The translations under genes and the position numbers were made by a program. DNA of 64,000 nucleotides from contig NZ_JQMV01000003.1 in assembly GCF_000744885.1 (NCBI RefSeq), positions 1,736,001 to 1,800,000 on the forward strand, written 5' to 3'. The notes under the pieces were generated by a model. It was not told where the DNA came from, made no database searches, and worked only from the letters and a program-made list of their open reading frames with translations. This DNA comes from Thermus amyloliquefaciens. GTDB lineage: Bacteria; Deinococcota; Deinococci; Deinococcales; Thermaceae. This document shows, one piece after another, positions 9,273 through 16,748 of this stretch; within the stretch, counting starts at the first letter, position 1, and every line of letters starts with the position of its first letter.

Positions 9273-12200
9273 ATGGAGCATTTCTTTGACGAACACGCAC
9301 AGGCCATCGCCAAACGTCAGTATTTGCAGGAAGGAGACGGGGACATCCTGGGCATGTTCCGTCGGGTGGCCCGGGAGATCGCCAAGCCCGAAAAGCCCGA
9401 GGAGCGCTCCCTTTGGGAGGAGCGCTTCTTCCGGCTCATGGCCAGCAAGCGCTTCTCCCCCGGGGGGCGGATCCTGGCGGGGGCGGGCACCCCCCACGGC
9501 AACCTCCTGAACTGCTTCGTGCAAGGGGCCACGGAAAACCCGCCGGAGAGCTTTGCGGGCATCATGGAGGTGGCCAAGAAGCTGGCCCTGGTCACCAAGG
9601 TGGGCGGGGGGAATGGGGTCAACCTGGACCCCTACCGCTCCAAAGGGAACCGCAAGCGCCAGGGGGTGCGGGGGGTGGCCTACCTCTTTGCGGGGCACCC
9701 GGACGTGGAGGACTTCATCCGGGGCCTCATGCGCCCCCCCACCAACCCCGAGGGGCCCAAGGAGGAGATCGCCCTCAAGAACTTCGCACGGGTGGTCTAC
9801 GGGGAGCTGGCCCCTGAGCTGAAGGCCCTGGCAGAGCGCCACGGGGTCCTTACGGTGAAGGAGCCTCCCAAGGAGCGCATCCTGGTGCCGGACGACATGG
9901 GGGGCATCATCGAGGCCGCCAAGGAGGCCGCCGACCTGGCCCGAAAGGGCCAGGAGCCCCACGTGGACTTCAGCCTCCTGCGGCCGGAGGGGGCCCCCAT
10001 CCGGGGCTCCGGGGGGACCAGCTCGGGGCCGGTGAGCTTCCTCTTTGAGATCTTTGACCACTTCCTGGAGTGGGCCGCCCTGGGGGCGGAGGAGGCGGGC
10101 CCGGTGGCCACCCTGCGCTACGTGTACGCCCCGGTCCTCCGGGTGGTGCGCCAAGGGGGATGCCTCCACCCCGACACCCTGGTGCACACCGACCGGGGAA
10201 CCCTCCGGCTTCGGGAAATCGTGGACCCTTTCCGCAAGGGTTGGCAGCGCCATGTCCTAAGCGTGGCCACCGACCAGGGATGGCGCTTTAGCCCCGAGGG
10301 CTACAACAACGGGGTTGCGCCCACGCTCCGGGTGGTCCTGGAAAACGGCCTCGAGGTCCAAGGGACCCCCAACCACAAGCTAAAGGTGCTCCGGGAAGAC
10401 GGCAGCCGGGAATGGGTAGAGCTACAGCACCTGAGGCCGGGGGACTGGGTTATCTGGGTTCTGGACGAGCACACGGGCACGCCGGTTTCGCTGGCCCCTT
10501 TGGATGAGCCCCTCCATCCCAACGCCACCCCCATCCGCACCCCTCACCTGCTGACGGAGGAGCTGGCCTTCCTGTTGGGTTTTCTGTGGGGAGAGGGGTT
10601 TGTCAGCGGGGACCGGGTAGGCCTCTCCCTACACGAGGACGAGCCCATGCGGGAAGAGGCCAAGCGGCTCTTCCGGGAGCTCTTTGGCCTGGAGCTTCGG
10701 GAGGAAAGGAAACCCCAGGACAGGGGTGTGACCCTGGTGGTGCGGAGCGCGCCCCTCGTGGCTTGGCTCCGTAAAAATGGCCTCCTCAAGGGAAAGGCGC
10801 GGGAGCTCGAGGTCCCACGGGCCATCCGGCAAAGCCCCAGGCCCGTCCTAGGTGCCTTCCTGCGGGGGCTCTTCGAGGCGGATGGCTTCATAACCGCAGG
10901 CTACCCCACCCTCACCACCGCCTCCCGGCGCTTGGCCCAGGAGGTCATGGTCCTGTTGGGCGGCCTGGGCATCCCCGCAAAGCTCATGCGCTACAACCCC
11001 TTGCCTGGGCGTTTCTCCAAGGCCGAGCACTACCGGGTGCGGGTGGTGACCGCCAAGGGGCTCGAGCGCTATTTGGAACGGGTGGGCGTCCCCCGGGGGT
11101 CCCGTTTTGAAGCCCTTCTGGCCGGGCAGCCGGACACGCGCAGGGAGTCCAGCTGGCCCCTTCCCCACGCCAAGGGCTTGTTGGAGCCCCTTCTTGGGGC
11201 CACGCAGGCCGGCAAGAGGGGGCACCCTTCGCCCCACGCCCCGCTGCGCAAAGACCTTCTCCGCTACATGCGGGGAGAGAGGCGGCTTACCGCCACGGGG
11301 TACACCCTGGTCCTGGAGAAAGCCCACCACGCGGGTCTTTCCGCCCCAGACTTTGACTTCAAGGAGTACTACGTCCGGGTGGCCTCCGTGGAGGAGGGCG
11401 GCCCCATCCTCACCCTGGACCTGTCCGTGGAGGGCAACCACACCTATCTGGCCAACGGGCTGGTCAGCCATAACACCCGCCGTGGGGCGGGGATGGCCAC
11501 CCTTTCCATAGAGCACCCCGACCTCCTGGACTTCCTCACCGCCAAGGACCTGGACCGGGAAAAGGCCGAGGGGGACATCTCCACCTTCAACATCTCCGTC
11601 CTGGTCACCGAGGCCTTCATGAAGGCCCTCGAGGAGGACGCCCTTTGGCCCGTGACCCCCATTGAGGTGCCGGGGAAGTACTACCCCTACCCCCTGGAAG
11701 GCCCCTACACGGGCCAGATCCCCAACCTCCCCGAGCGGGAGGACGGGGCCAAGGCCGTGCCCCTCTACGGGGGCAAGGTGCCCGCCCGCTGGCTCTGGCA
11801 CGAGATCGCCTGGCACGCCTGGGCCACGGGGGAGCCGGGGCTCATCTTCGTGGACCGGGTGAACGAGCTCTCCGCCCTCAAGGGGCTTGGGCCTAAATAC
11901 TGGATTCGTTCCACTAACCCGTGCGGGGAGATACCCCTCACCACAGGCGAGCCCTGCGACCTGGGGGCCTTGAACCTGGCGGCCTACGTGAAGGACGGGG
12001 AGTTCCAGATGGCGGAGTTCCGGAAGGACGTCCACACCGCCATCCGCTTCCTGGACAACGTCCTGGACGTGAACCGCTTCGCCCTCGAGGACAACGAGGA
12101 GGCGGCCAAGAAGCTTCGCCGCTTGGGCCTCGGGGTCATGGGCCTGGCGGACGCCCTCATCAAGATGGGCCTCCCCTACTCCTCGGAGGCGGCCAGGGAG

Positions 12201-13514
12201 AAGGTCTACGAGATCATGTCCGCCCTGCGGGAGGAGGCCATCCGGGCCTCGGAGGCCCTGGCGGAGGAGCGGGGGGTCTTCCCCCTCTACGAGGAACACC
12301 GGGGGTACTTCCAGGCCCTGGGGGTGCGGCCCAGGCGCAACGTGGCCGTCCTCACCGTGGCCCCCACGGGCACCACCAGCATGCTCATGGGGGTCTCCAG
12401 CGGCATCGAGCCCGTCTTCAGCCCCTTCGTCTGGCGCCGGATCGGGGGGGAGTACAAGCCCCTCCTCCACCCCCTTTTCGTGGAGCTCATGGAGGCCTAC
12501 CCGCCCCATCCCGATTACGCCAAGGACGGGCGATGGGACTGGGACAAGGTGATCGCCGCCATCCAGGAGGACGGGCACGGCTCGGTGAAGGGGCTTTCCT
12601 TCGTGCCCGAAGCCATCCGGCGGGTCTTTGAGTGCGCCCACGACGTCCACCCCTTGGACCATGTGCGCATGCAGGGGGCGGTGCAGCGGGCCTTTGATGC
12701 GGAGGGCTTAGCTGCAAACAGTCTGTCCAAAACGGTGAACCTGCCCAACCACGCCACGGTCTTGGAGGTGGAGGAGGCCTACCTGGAGGCCTACCGCACG
12801 GGGTGCAAGGGCATCACCGTCTACCGGGACGGCTCCAGGGAGTTCCAGGTGCTCACGGTGAAGAAGGAGGAGGGGGTGGAGAAGAAGGCCGAGCCTGCGC
12901 CCGAGCCCAAAGAGGCCAAGGCGCGGGTCTCGCCCGCAACCCAGGCGGCAAGCCCCGCTCCCGGGGGAGAGGCCTCCATGCCCTCCCGGCCCGGCCAGCC
13001 CCTCCACGAGCGCCCAGGGAGGCTTCTCGGCTTCACCGACATGGTGAAGCTCCTCTCCCCGGACGGAGGGAAGCGGAGCTTCCTGGTCACGGTGAACCTG
13101 CTGGGGGACAAACCCATTGAGGTCATCCTCACCTCGGGCAAGGCGGGGGATGAGGCCAACGCCGACTCCGAAGCCCTGGGCCGGGTGGTGTCCATCGCCT
13201 TACAGTACGGGGTGCCCCCCGAGGCCATCATCCGCACCCTCCGGGGCATCAACGGCGGGCTCTACGGCACCTACCAGGGGAGGCTCGTGTCCAGCAAGGC
13301 GGACCTCATCGCCGTGGCCTTGGAGACCATCCCCAAGGACCTCAAGGGGGTCCCGGCGGCCCCATCCCAAGAGGCGGAGCCCCTCCCCAGCCTCTCCGGG
13401 GGCGGGATAGAGCTGGCGGGGGCGGCTCAATGCCCCTCCTGCGGGGAAAAGGCCCTGGTGCGGGAAGAGGGGTGCTGGAAGTGCCAGGTGTGCGGGTACT
13501 CCAAGTGCGGGTAA
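9273..13514 (+). CDS. nrdJ: Class II (B12-dependent) ribonucleotide reductase with intein
   Basis: Reduces ribonucleotides to deoxyribonucleotides using adenosylcobalamin. The primary product is 1413 residues; after removal of a 438-residue intein the host enzyme is 975. Host marks are LLNCFVQG (C81, redox Cys), VGGGNGVNLDP, NPCGEIPL (thiyl-radical Cys, C884 in the precursor) and TVAPTGTTSMLMGVSSGIEP. A linker rich in Pro/Ala/Glu leads to a TSCPD domain (from about 1260) and a C-terminal zinc-ribbon-like tail with CPSC, CWKC and CGYSKCG. A GGAGG Shine-Dalgarno precedes the ATG. A strong terminator hairpin follows the stop. No nrdA/nrdB genes are nearby. Confidence 0.95.
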   Translation: MEHFFDEHAQAIAKRQYLQEGDGDILGMFRRVAREIAKPEKPEERSLWEERFFRLMASKRFSPGGRILAGAGTPHGNLLNCFVQGATENPPESFAGIMEVAKKLALVTKVGGGNGVNLDPYRSKGNRKRQGVRGVAYLFAGHPDVEDFIRGLMRPPTNPEGPKEEIALKNFARVVYGELAPELKALAERHGVLTVKEPPKERILVPDDMGGIIEAAKEAADLARKGQEPHVDFSLLRPEGAPIRGSGGTSSGPVSFLFEIFDHFLEWAALGAEEAGPVATLRYVYAPVLRVVRQGGCLHPDTLVHTDRGTLRLREIVDPFRKGWQRHVLSVATDQGWRFSPEGYNNGVAPTLRVVLENGLEVQGTPNHKLKVLREDGSREWVELQHLRPGDWVIWVLDEHTGTPVSLAPLDEPLHPNATPIRTPHLLTEELAFLLGFLWGEGFVSGDRVGLSLHEDEPMREEAKRLFRELFGLELREERKPQDRGVTLVVRSAPLVAWLRKNGLLKGKARELEVPRAIRQSPRPVLGAFLRGLFEADGFITAGYPTLTTASRRLAQEVMVLLGGLGIPAKLMRYNPLPGRFSKAEHYRVRVVTAKGLERYLERVGVPRGSRFEALLAGQPDTRRESSWPLPHAKGLLEPLLGATQAGKRGHPSPHAPLRKDLLRYMRGERRLTATGYTLVLEKAHHAGLSAPDFDFKEYYVRVASVEEGGPILTLDLSVEGNHTYLANGLVSHNTRRGAGMATLSIEHPDLLDFLTAKDLDREKAEGDISTFNISVLVTEAFMKALEEDALWPVTPIEVPGKYYPYPLEGPYTGQIPNLPEREDGAKAVPLYGGKVPARWLWHEIAWHAWATGEPGLIFVDRVNELSALKGLGPKYWIRSTNPCGEIPLTTGEPCDLGALNLAAYVKDGEFQMAEFRKDVHTAIRFLDNVLDVNRFALEDNEEAAKKLRRLGLGVMGLADALIKMGLPYSSEAAREKVYEIMSALREEAIRASEALAEERGVFPLYEEHRGYFQALGVRPRRNVAVLTVAPTGTTSMLMGVSSGIEPVFSPFVWRRIGGEYKPLLHPLFVELMEAYPPHPDYAKDGRWDWDKVIAAIQEDGHGSVKGLSFVPEAIRRVFECAHDVHPLDHVRMQGAVQRAFDAEGLAANSLSKTVNLPNHATVLEVEEAYLEAYRTGCKGITVYRDGSREFQVLTVKKEEGVEKKAEPAPEPKEAKARVSPATQAASPAPGGEASMPSRPGQPLHERPGRLLGFTDMVKLLSPDGGKRSFLVTVNLLGDKPIEVILTSGKAGDEANADSEALGRVVSIALQYGVPPEAIIRTLRGINGGLYGTYQGRLVSSKADLIAVALETIPKDLKGVPAAPSQEAEPLPSLSGGGIELAGAAQCPSCGEKALVREEGCWKCQVCGYSKCG
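10161..11474 (+). mobile_element. Intein with LAGLIDADG homing endonuclease inside NrdJ
   Basis: 438 residues (297-734 of the precursor) between host residues RQGG and TRRGAG, a conserved active-site stretch. Splicing residues are all present: Cys1 (CLHPDT), block B TPNH, penultimate His and terminal Asn (LVSHN), and Thr as +1 residue. Two LAGLIDADG-type helices are seen, LLGFLWGEGF (about 10570) and FLRGLFEADGF (about 10860), so the homing endonuclease looks intact. Base composition resembles the host. Thermus RNR genes are known intein hosts. Confidence 0.93.
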
Positions 13515-14985: not shown

Positions 14986-14988
14986 AAT
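14983..14988 (+). promoter_or_regulatory. -10 box TAGAAT containing an upstream stop codon
   Basis: TAGAAT starts with the TAG stop (14983-14985) of the phosphatase gene and lies ten bases before the ATG at 14999, so the leader would be only a few bases. Confidence 0.35.
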
Positions 14989-14998
14989 GAAAGCCGGT

Positions 14999-15478
14999 AT
15001 GGACCTCGAGGCCAAAAAGAAAGTCCTCCGGAGCTTCACCTACGGCCTGTACATCCTGACCGCGAAGGACGGCGAGGAGTACGCCGCCGGCACGGTGAAC
15101 TGGGTCACCCAGGCCTCCTTCACCCCACCCCTCATCGCCCTGGGCGTGAAGCGGGATAGCCGCCTGCACGAGCTGATTGGGCGCACGGGGAAGCTGGCCC
15201 TCATGACCCTGGCCCAGGACCAGAAGGCCATCGCCCAGGATTTCTTCAAGCCCACCCAGAGGGAGGGGAACACCCTGAACGGCCACCCCTTTGAGCCCTC
15301 CCCCATCCTCGGCCTTCCCCTTCTCCGCGAGCTCCCCTACTGGCTGGAGGCGGAGGTGCGCCACATCTACGAAGGTGGGGACCACAGCGTGGTGGTGGCG
15401 GAGGTGGTGGGGGCGGGGGTGCGCTTTGAGGCCAAGCCCCTAGTGATGTGGGACACGGGCTGGTTCTACGGGGGCTAG
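14999..15478 (+). CDS. Flavin reductase-like, FMN-binding protein
   Basis: A 159-residue split-barrel protein of the flavin reductase-like domain: RSFTYGLYILTAKDG..AAGTVNWVTQASFTPPLIALGVKRDS is the standard FMN-binding N-terminal half, with the HSVVVAEVV block near the C-terminus. It probably reduces or binds FMN with NAD(P)H; the partner oxygenase, if any, is not in the window. ATG codons occur at 14987 and 14999. The second is chosen because the family homology starts with DLEAKKKVLRSF. Confidence 0.82.
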   Translation: MDLEAKKKVLRSFTYGLYILTAKDGEEYAAGTVNWVTQASFTPPLIALGVKRDSRLHELIGRTGKLALMTLAQDQKAIAQDFFKPTQREGNTLNGHPFEPSPILGLPLLRELPYWLEAEVRHIYEGGDHSVVVAEVVGAGVRFEAKPLVMWDTGWFYGG

Positions 15479-15511
15479 TCCTAACTTCCTCCTCCTTTTC
15501 TTAAGGCATGC

Positions 15512-15534
15512 TATTATAGTTAGTCTCAAGGAGG
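15512..15534 (+). promoter_or_regulatory. Promoter and Shine-Dalgarno of the AT-rich gene
   Basis: AT-rich TATTATAGT (15512-15520) gives -10 candidates, followed by AAGGAGG (15528-15534), five bases before the ATG at 15540. This is a conventional leadered start, unlike most native genes here. Confidence 0.45.
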
Positions 15535-15539
15535 AACTC

Positions 15540-16349
15540 ATGACCTTTTCCAAAAGGACGATTGATCGCGTCATAACCGGGCTTAAGCGTTTTCTTCCTG
15601 TCTTAGATGCGGCCTACGCAAAAGACGTTAACGAGGCTGACACGGTGCGGATTGTCGCAGACATGTTAAGCGACGTATTTGGCTATGATAAATGGAACGA
15701 AATCACCTCTGAGCTCGCTATCCGTGGAACTTATTGCGACTTGGCCGTTCTTCACAAAGGAGTTGTCAAATACCTTGTTGAGGTCAAAGCGATTGGCTCT
15801 GAGTTGAAGGATGCTCACTTAAAGCAAGCTGTGGACTACGGAGCCAATCAAGGAGTGGAGTGGGTCATGCTTACAAATGGCCGCATCTGGCGTGTTTACC
15901 GCATTGTTTTTTCGAAGCCCATTGGGCAGGAACTTGTTTTAGATATAGATTTGTTTAACTTGGGCAATCGCAAAGGTGCTTTAACAAAGACAATACAGGA
16001 TCTTCTTCTCCTTACCAAGGAGGCTTTGCTCAAAGGCCTTCTTGAACAGTATTACGTGCAACAACAGCTCTCGAATCGTTTCGTATTGGCCGCGCTCTTA
16101 CAAACACCTCCTGTGCTTAAGACGCTTCGCAAGCTCTTTCGTCAACTCAATCCCGAATTAAAGCTAGAAATCGAGGAAATCAAAGACTTGCTTACGGCCG
16201 AGGTCATCAAACGAGAAGCCTTAGAGGGAGAACGGGCAGCGATGGCGGCAAAACTTGTTAAAAAGTTATTTCAACCCAAAAAAGCCGCAAAATCCAAAGG
16301 GGCCAAAGAACAACCTGCTCCCGGGGAAAACCCCTCTAGCGATTTATAG
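15540..16349 (+). CDS. Orphan HsdR_N-type (PD-(D/E)xK) nuclease, AT-rich, foreign
   Basis: A 269-residue protein resembling the N-terminal nuclease domain of type I restriction HsdR subunits. Core residues are D67 (CDLAVL), E81-V-K83 (LVEVKA) and Q96 (LKQAVDYG), followed by GVEWVMLTNGRIWRVY. The rest (about 150-230) is helical. The tail is Lys/Pro-rich (KKLFQPKKAAKSKGAK). No helicase, HsdM or HsdS is encoded nearby. Sampled lines are 43-47% GC against about 70% around it, and codon usage is different, indicating recent transfer. A defence or phage-linked role is plausible but unproven. Confidence 0.78.
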   Translation: MTFSKRTIDRVITGLKRFLPVLDAAYAKDVNEADTVRIVADMLSDVFGYDKWNEITSELAIRGTYCDLAVLHKGVVKYLVEVKAIGSELKDAHLKQAVDYGANQGVEWVMLTNGRIWRVYRIVFSKPIGQELVLDIDLFNLGNRKGALTKTIQDLLLLTKEALLKGLLEQYYVQQQLSNRFVLAALLQTPPVLKTLRKLFRQLNPELKLEIEEIKDLLTAEVIKREALEGERAAMAAKLVKKLFQPKKAAKSKGAKEQPAPGENPSSDL

Positions 16350-16358
16350 GCAGCCGCT

Positions 16359-16748
16359 TCAACCTTCACTTACATGGATTTCCACCTCCTGACCTTCTGG
16401 GAGTAGGAAGGCCCTGACCCCATCGGTGCCGAAGATCACGTAGGGCACCCGCCAGCGGGCCTCGCGGAGGTCGGTGGGGCTGGGAAAGGCGGGCCCCCTG
16501 GGGTGGGAGTGGTAGATGGCCAGGAGGCTTAGGCCCTCTCTTTCCAGCTCCTTCAGGGCCCGAAGCAGGGCCAAGGGTTCGGCCAGGTAACCCGTGAGGG
16601 GCTGGGGGTGGGCGTTGGGCAGGGGGATGACCCGCTCCACCTCCCGCCTACCCGCCCATAGCCCCACCCCCTCCCTGGGCGCCTCCCCCTGCAGGTGGGC
16701 GCGGGTTTCCTCCAGAAGCCTCCTGGGCACGTAGAGCACTTGGGACAA
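16359..16748 (-). CDS. JAMM/MPN+ metalloprotease
   Basis: A 129-residue stand-alone JAMM-domain protein. The zinc site is complete: E26 (REGVGLWAG), H80-S-H82 (YHSHP), S90 and D93 (PSPTD), matching EXnHXHX7SXXD. Such bacterial enzymes cut after Gly-Gly of ubiquitin-like sulfur carriers or their conjugates; Thermus is known to conjugate the ubiquitin-like TtuB to proteins. The start is TTG at 16748 with AAGGAGG seven bases upstream. Its promoter overlaps that of the EF-G-2 gene. Confidence 0.82.
   Translation of the reverse strand: MSQVLYVPRRLLEETRAHLQGEAPREGVGLWAGRREVERVIPLPNAHPQPLTGYLAEPLALLRALKELEREGLSLLAIYHSHPRGPAFPSPTDLREARWRVPYVIFGTDGVRAFLLPEGQEVEIHVSEG

What the first reader, a model, noticed from the sequence alone, without database searches (positions are those of the whole stretch)
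15479..16349. AT-rich orphan HsdR_N-type nuclease in a 70% GC chromosome
Composition drops to about 45% GC exactly over one gene and its promoter, and returns at once on both sides. The protein has the full PD-(D/E)xK core of HsdR N-terminal domains (D67, E81-V-K83, Q96) but no helicase, methylase or specificity partner. It also has a conventional promoter and AAGGAGG leader, unlike the native genes. This is a recent single-gene acquisition and could be a stand-alone defence or anti-plasmid nuclease, or a phage moron.
Basis: partly seen in the sequence, partly recalled or inferred. Interest (0 to 1): 0.62.

Follow-up and report, generated by a model that had tools for sequence, protein, structure and literature searches.

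The report
Prophage-type stand-alone nuclease in Thermus
A hot-spring bacterium carries a single AT-rich gene for a predicted DNA-cutting enzyme related to genes that temperate viruses carry next to their dormancy switch; it is probably a one-protein shield against other viruses, kept for a long time at a spot on the chromosome where different single genes get inserted.

Summary
The dip is real: window 15540-16349 (269 aa) is 46% GC in a 67.6% GC window, bounded exactly by two conserved genes. The protein is an HSDR_N_2/PD-(D/E)xK nuclease with a complete catalytic set (D67, E81-x-K83, Q96-x3-Y100), invariant or nearly so in 91 relatives. It has no helicase, methylase or specificity domain, and the genome has no HsdM.

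Two of 27 held Thermus genomes have it, at the same site with the same junctions; 9 have the empty site. Two others carry an unrelated AT-rich gene there and one a ~100-bp insert: a hotspot. The two copies differ more at synonymous sites (dS 0.63) than flanking genes (0.34-0.42), with dN/dS 0.09: an old, selected gene, so 'recent' is wrong. One copy is now broken by an IS.

Its nearest kin is a Thermaceae prophage gene (58%) between repressor and integrase; Thermus phage Riverbug has the same layout, already proposed as lysogen-expressed defence. At least 165 genome loci from many phyla have the family; it is AT-richer than its surroundings in 70/76. Best reading: a prophage defence nuclease stranded in the chromosome. 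Activity, protection and targeting are untested.

The parts
14987..15478 (+). Flavin-reductase-like gene (163 aa), left flank; its stop codon is the left edge of the insertion
   Evidence: matched at length in 24 of 27 Thermus genomes; in the occupied sites the variable part starts right after its stop codon
15479..16358 (.). Inserted AT-rich segment, absent from 9 empty-site Thermus genomes (right edge approximate: the last codons of the convergent JAMM gene are also altered)
15528..15534 (+). AAGGAGG ribosome-binding leader
   Evidence: Direct reading; such leaders are not rare in this genome
15540..16349 (+). 269-aa stand-alone HSDR_N-type PD-(D/E)xK nuclease
   Evidence: phrog_17239 E=4.7e-78 over residues 2-256; AlphaFold mean pLDDT 93.9
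15738..15740 (+). Predicted catalytic D67
   Evidence: 90 of 91 family members
15780..15788 (+). Predicted catalytic E81-V-K83
   Evidence: E81 and K83 91 of 91
15825..15839 (+). QxxxY motif, Q96 to Y100
   Evidence: Q96 in all 90 rows with a letter, Y100 91 of 91
15972..16271 (+). C-terminal all-helical domain (residues 145-244) with K224-R225 in 90 of 91; role unknown
16359..16748 (-). JAMM-type gene (129 aa), right flank; in empty-site genomes such as G017 its stop codon overlaps that of the flavin reductase

Best explanation
A prophage-type, stand-alone restriction-like nuclease that now sits alone in a Thermus chromosome. Its closest kin is the lysogeny-module gene of a Thermaceae temperate phage, next to an S24/LexA-like repressor and upstream of the integrase, where it would be made while the phage is dormant. 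One copy landed between two convergent housekeeping genes at a spot that tolerates insertion, and was then inherited, spread, lost or replaced, most simply by homologous recombination through the flanks. Inferred function: the PD-(D/E)xK domain with its QxxxY motif, aided by the helical C-terminal domain and basic tail, cuts incoming phage (or plasmid) DNA without a methylase. Shown here: fold prediction, conservation of catalytic residues, prophage kinship, module layout, site history, purifying selection. Inferred: nuclease activity, antiphage effect, and how self DNA is spared (a DNA-end, replication-structure or modification cue is more likely than recognition sequence plus methylation, since there is no methylase).
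For: HSDR_N_2 match; complete catalytic set in 91 family members that were picked by motifs outside the active site; confident alpha-beta core with E81/K83 at a strand end and Q96-Y100 on the next helix; weak but consistent fold hits to DrdV, an HsdR fragment (3h1t) and BpuSI. The closest relative is a Thermaceae prophage gene (58%; 100% SH-aLRT for the clade of four) between an S24 repressor and an integrase. Riverbug gp55 lies in the same layout, Lalka phages have the repressor and integrase without this gene, and PMC11437467 proposes the Riverbug module as lysogen-expressed defence. Among viral neighbours, HTH/S24 repressors and integrases/recombinases are the commonest. dN/dS 0.09. No HsdM in the genome.
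Against: No activity or phage-plating data. Neighbours of the family are not enriched in defence systems (methylase models hit single neighbours, GajB one, of 118). Fold matches to solved structures are weak (best E=0.025). No promoter was recognised. Most chromosomal relatives have no repressor or integrase beside them.
Confidence: 0.62

Rival explanations
1. Same nuclease, but its main job is not antiphage defence: it serves the phage or plasmid that carries it (replication, recombination, or removal of competing plasmids).
For: Relatives sit on Leptospira plasmids and on many viral contigs; related nuclease folds often act in recombination (established knowledge of RecB-like nucleases).
Against: The Riverbug and Thermaceae prophage copies lie in the repressor-integrase (lysogeny) segment, not in the replication module, and a gene serving only its element would hardly stay under selection alone in a chromosome (dN/dS 0.09).
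Confidence: 0.17
2. A nuclease subunit that works in trans with a partner encoded elsewhere in the genome or with a host factor.
For: Conserved helical domain with near-invariant K224-R225 and no known target-recognition part; in 7 genome loci of several phyla a small ion-channel gene lies within two genes on the same strand, on either side.
Against: No HsdM anywhere in this genome; no constant neighbour across the family; membrane neighbours not enriched overall.
Confidence: 0.1
3. A free-standing homing-type selfish nuclease that cuts the empty site between the two convergent genes and copies itself in.
For: A lone nuclease gene exactly at one site with empty alleles in close relatives; patchy presence across the Thermus tree.
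Against: An unrelated gene lacking any nuclease match occupies the same site in two species; the family's neighbours elsewhere are unrelated, so there is no shared target site; no excess identity of the flanks between G000 and G007 that co-conversion would leave.
Confidence: 0.06
4. A decaying remnant of a type I or type IIG/IIL restriction enzyme without function.
For: Only the nuclease part of such enzymes is present; one of the two Thermus copies is broken by an IS.
Against: The 250-300 aa architecture is the standard form in about 90 of 109 loci called, catalytic residues are invariant and selection is strong.
Confidence: 0.05

Closest known systems
Thermus phage Riverbug gp55 (XKB90104.1, annotated 'restriction endonuclease'; PMC11437467)
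   Same: Same length, 42% identity over 92% of the protein, same catalytic set; module proposed by its discoverers as lysogen-expressed defence
   Different: [quoted passage not shown] the window copy is alone in a chromosome and closer to another prophage gene (58%)
PHROG 17239 (phage protein family, unknown function)
   Same: Full-length match, E=4.7e-78
   Different: No function assigned; the window copy is not in a phage
HsdR N-terminal nuclease domain of type I restriction enzymes (Pfam HSDR_N_2 / HSDR_N)
   Same: PD-(D/E)xK core with QxxxY
   Different: No helicase motor, no HsdM
Type IIG/IIL restriction-modification enzymes (DrdV, BpuSI), nuclease part
   Same: Weak fold similarity; the Riverbug authors call gp55 homologous to type IIL enzymes
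   Different: No methylase or target-recognition domain
Shedu (one-component nuclease defence; DNA-end sensing, PMC12904381)
   Same: A nuclease system without methylase, used here only as a working model
   Different: No match to PADLOC models; different family

Membership tests
Type I restriction enzyme R subunit (HsdR) | HSDR_N PD-(D/E)xK nuclease domain | tested here: met
   (HSDR_N_2 28.9 bits, cut-off 25)
Type I restriction enzyme R subunit (HsdR) | Superfamily 2 helicase/translocase domains in the same chain | tested here: not met
   269 aa, no helicase match; the remainder is helical
Type I restriction enzyme R subunit (HsdR) | HsdM and HsdS partners | tested here: not met
   No HsdM_N in the genome; none adjacent. 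HsdS not searched genome-wide
Type IIG/IIL restriction-modification enzyme | Nuclease fused to methylase and target-recognition domain | tested here: not met
   only weak fold similarity of the nuclease part
Shedu | Match to Shedu models | tested here: not met
   only a weak MTase_II hit in PADLOC; none in Pfam
PHROG 17239 / Riverbug gp55-like family | Full-length homology and same catalytic residues | tested here: met
Prophage lysogeny-module gene | Lies between repressor and integrase of a temperate phage | tested here: not met
   True of Riverbug and the Thermaceae prophage, not of the window copy; kinship with such genes is supported by the tree
Antiphage defence gene | Protects the cell against phage | not testable with these tools
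   Needs plating assays
Free-standing homing endonuclease | Cuts the empty allele of its own site | not testable with these tools
   Indirect evidence is against

The most novel reading that the evidence does not exclude
The whole family (about 270 aa, invariant active site, spread over many phyla, phages and plasmids, no methylase, no fixed partner) is an unnamed one-protein antiphage nuclease system that tells foreign from own DNA by a cue other than methylation, and Thermus species swap it with other single-gene modules at one chromosomal landing site.
Probability: 0.33. Interest if true: 0.65.

Novelty: new member of a known kind. Interest (0 to 1): 0.42.

Why it matters
Riverbug gp55 has been proposed as lysogen defence without a test. 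The window gene is a chromosomal member of the same wider family that has stayed under selection away from any phage, in a naturally transformable genus with workable genetics, so it can be deleted cleanly and tested. The family is widespread and uncharacterised, absent from the PADLOC models used here, and poses a clear question: how does a lone PD-(D/E)xK nuclease without a methylase spare its own chromosome? The flavin reductase-JAMM junction is also a ready place to look for further single-gene modules in Thermus. The composition result is a caution: low GC here is a family trait, not a clock.

Tried and rejected
A recurring membrane partner: adjacent same-strand neighbours have no more predicted transmembrane segments than genes further off (14/46 against 67/180); rejected as a rule. 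A defence-island context: PADLOC tallies of neighbours gave little beyond repressor-like HTH models. An intact Riverbug-like prophage in this genome as source: only a lone integrase relative at 578 kb with unrelated neighbours. Relatives by single-sequence pattern scans: none; an alignment query was needed. The second hotspot gene: no Pfam, PHROG, phage or viral match, only a weak partial plasmid match. Sequence search of solved structures: nothing useful. The careful family tree did not finish; the quick one is quoted.

Full report
Observation. The ORF at 15540-16349 (269 aa, ATG) is 46.5% GC in a 67.6% GC window; the change is sharp on both sides. In 464 kb sampled from the same genome, 400-bp windows average 0.676 with sd 0.033, and only four islands fall below 0.55. 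The protein matches Pfam HSDR_N_2 and, over residues 2-256, the phage family phrog_17239 at E=4.7e-78.

Protein. AlphaFold with an alignment of 91 sequences gives mean pLDDT 93.9: two N-terminal helices, a PD-(D/E)xK core, then an all-helical domain of about 100 residues and a low-confidence tail. D67 (90/91), E81 and K83 (91/91), Q96 (all 90 rows with a letter), Y100 (91/91) and E58 (91/91) are kept. The relatives were picked by motifs around D29-V36 and S44-K51 in genomes, and D29-D34 and E107-N113 in viral contigs, so conservation of those motifs is partly a product of the search, but that of the catalytic residues is not. Fold hits are weak but point to nuclease domains of DrdV (E 0.025), an HsdR fragment (3h1t) and BpuSI. 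The one solid match among predicted viral structures is an uncharacterised phage HsdR-N protein. There is no helicase or methylase part, and the genome holds no HsdM_N match, while nine control genomes, Thermus composti among them, do.

Site history. Of 27 Thermus genomes, only G000 (window) and G007 hold the gene. By my tally have the flavin reductase and JAMM genes side by side or with one insert: 9 are empty (G001-G005, G013, G017, G020, G023; G020 cut by a contig end), G000 and G007 carry the nuclease, G022 and G014 carry an unrelated AT-rich gene (272 aa in G022, with CxxC and HxxC near its start, 44% GC), and G008 an insert of about 100 bp. In G017 and close relatives the two convergent stop codons overlap in CTAG (direct reading). 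All inserts start right after the flavin reductase stop codon. G000 and G007 share the same right junction. The tree of flanking genes does not make G000 and G007 sisters; empty-site species and G014 with the other gene lie between (some forks weakly supported). So either one old gain was followed by several replacements with empty or other alleles, or the alleles moved between species by recombination in the flanks; these data do not decide.

Age and selection. Between G000 and G007 the gene has dS 0.63, dN 0.059, dN/dS 0.09; flanking genes have dS 0.34-0.42 and dN/dS 0.10-0.13. The gene copies are therefore no more recently parted than their flanks and have been under purifying selection. 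In G007 an insertion sequence of about 1.2 kb with a transposase now splits the gene after codon 45, with the rest of the frame still open, so that break looks recent.

Composition. Across 76 callable genome loci the gene is AT-richer than its locus in 70 (median 7.4 points), and in 33 of 33 viral loci; neighbouring genes over 200 aa are AT-richer than their locus in 34%. In Riverbug it is 52.6% GC in a 68.7% phage. Low GC is thus a family trait and cannot date the insertion.

Family and phage context. An alignment search found 165 genome loci from many phyla (80 kept) and 38 viral contigs; in the phylum of this genome 4 of 111 genomes match. The nearest relative of the Thermus pair is L119/G050, a prophage in a genome of the same family, with 100% SH-aLRT for the clade of four (quick tree). 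There the order is S24 repressor, nuclease, PEGA-domain protein, another gene, tyrosine integrase. Riverbug has LexA-like repressor, nuclease, periplasmic-domain protein, integrase, while Lalka27a has repressor, a hypothetical gene and integrase without the nuclease. The Riverbug authors propose such genes as lysogen-expressed defence that moves between unrelated phages (PMC11437467). Among viral neighbours, Cro/CI-type HTH and S24 repressors and integrases or recombinases are the most frequent. Leptospira weilii plasmids carry it too.

Mechanism. I read it as a prophage-type defence nuclease that lives on in the chromosome. Nuclease activity and antiphage action are inferred from fold, residues, kinship and selection. 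How it spares its own DNA is open; without a methylase, a cue such as DNA ends, replication structures or modified bases is the natural guess (compare Shedu in PMC12904381). A small ion-channel gene is near it in 7 genome loci and one viral contig, upstream or downstream, which may be a pairing in a subset; no general membrane partner was found.

Verdict. The finding is sound in its core, wrong on 'recent', and its kind has a published proposal in Riverbug. The added points are the hotspot with a second cargo gene, the age and selection, the family-wide AT bias, and the breadth of an uncharacterised family.

Noticed in passing
window 9273-13514 (+): A 1413-aa ribonucleotide reductase ORF appears to contain an intein: an insert beginning CLHPDTLVHTDRG and ending HTYLANGLVSHN interrupts the reductase sequence.
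   Followed up: no
L010 1998-2816 and L015 (complement, up to about 680): An unrelated AT-rich gene (272 aa in L010, CxxC/HxxC near the start, no Pfam or PHROG match) occupies the same site in two other Thermus genomes (53% identical) and was found nowhere else in the genus or family genomes held.
   Followed up: partly
L009 1985-2082: An insert of about 100 bp with a strong hairpin (CCCCGTCGTGG...CCACGACGGGG) sits at the same junction in G008 and leaves the JAMM tail intact.
   Followed up: no
L002 301-1505: An insertion sequence with CTCAAAACTTGCAC/GTGCAAGTTTTGAG ends and an apparent GTGA duplication splits the nuclease gene in G007.
   Followed up: partly
L059, L075, L077, L087, L092, L100, L109 (neighbours of the nuclease gene): A small ion-channel-like protein is encoded within two genes, same strand, on either side of the nuclease in several phyla; possible functional pair in a subset.
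   Followed up: partly
L003 1435-2595 (+) and 2470-3336 (-): In Thermus genome G026 a different, 386-aa HsdR_N-like protein (31% identity to the query) overlaps tail-to-tail with a DNA-methylase-like ORF (SPPYW motif).
   Followed up: no
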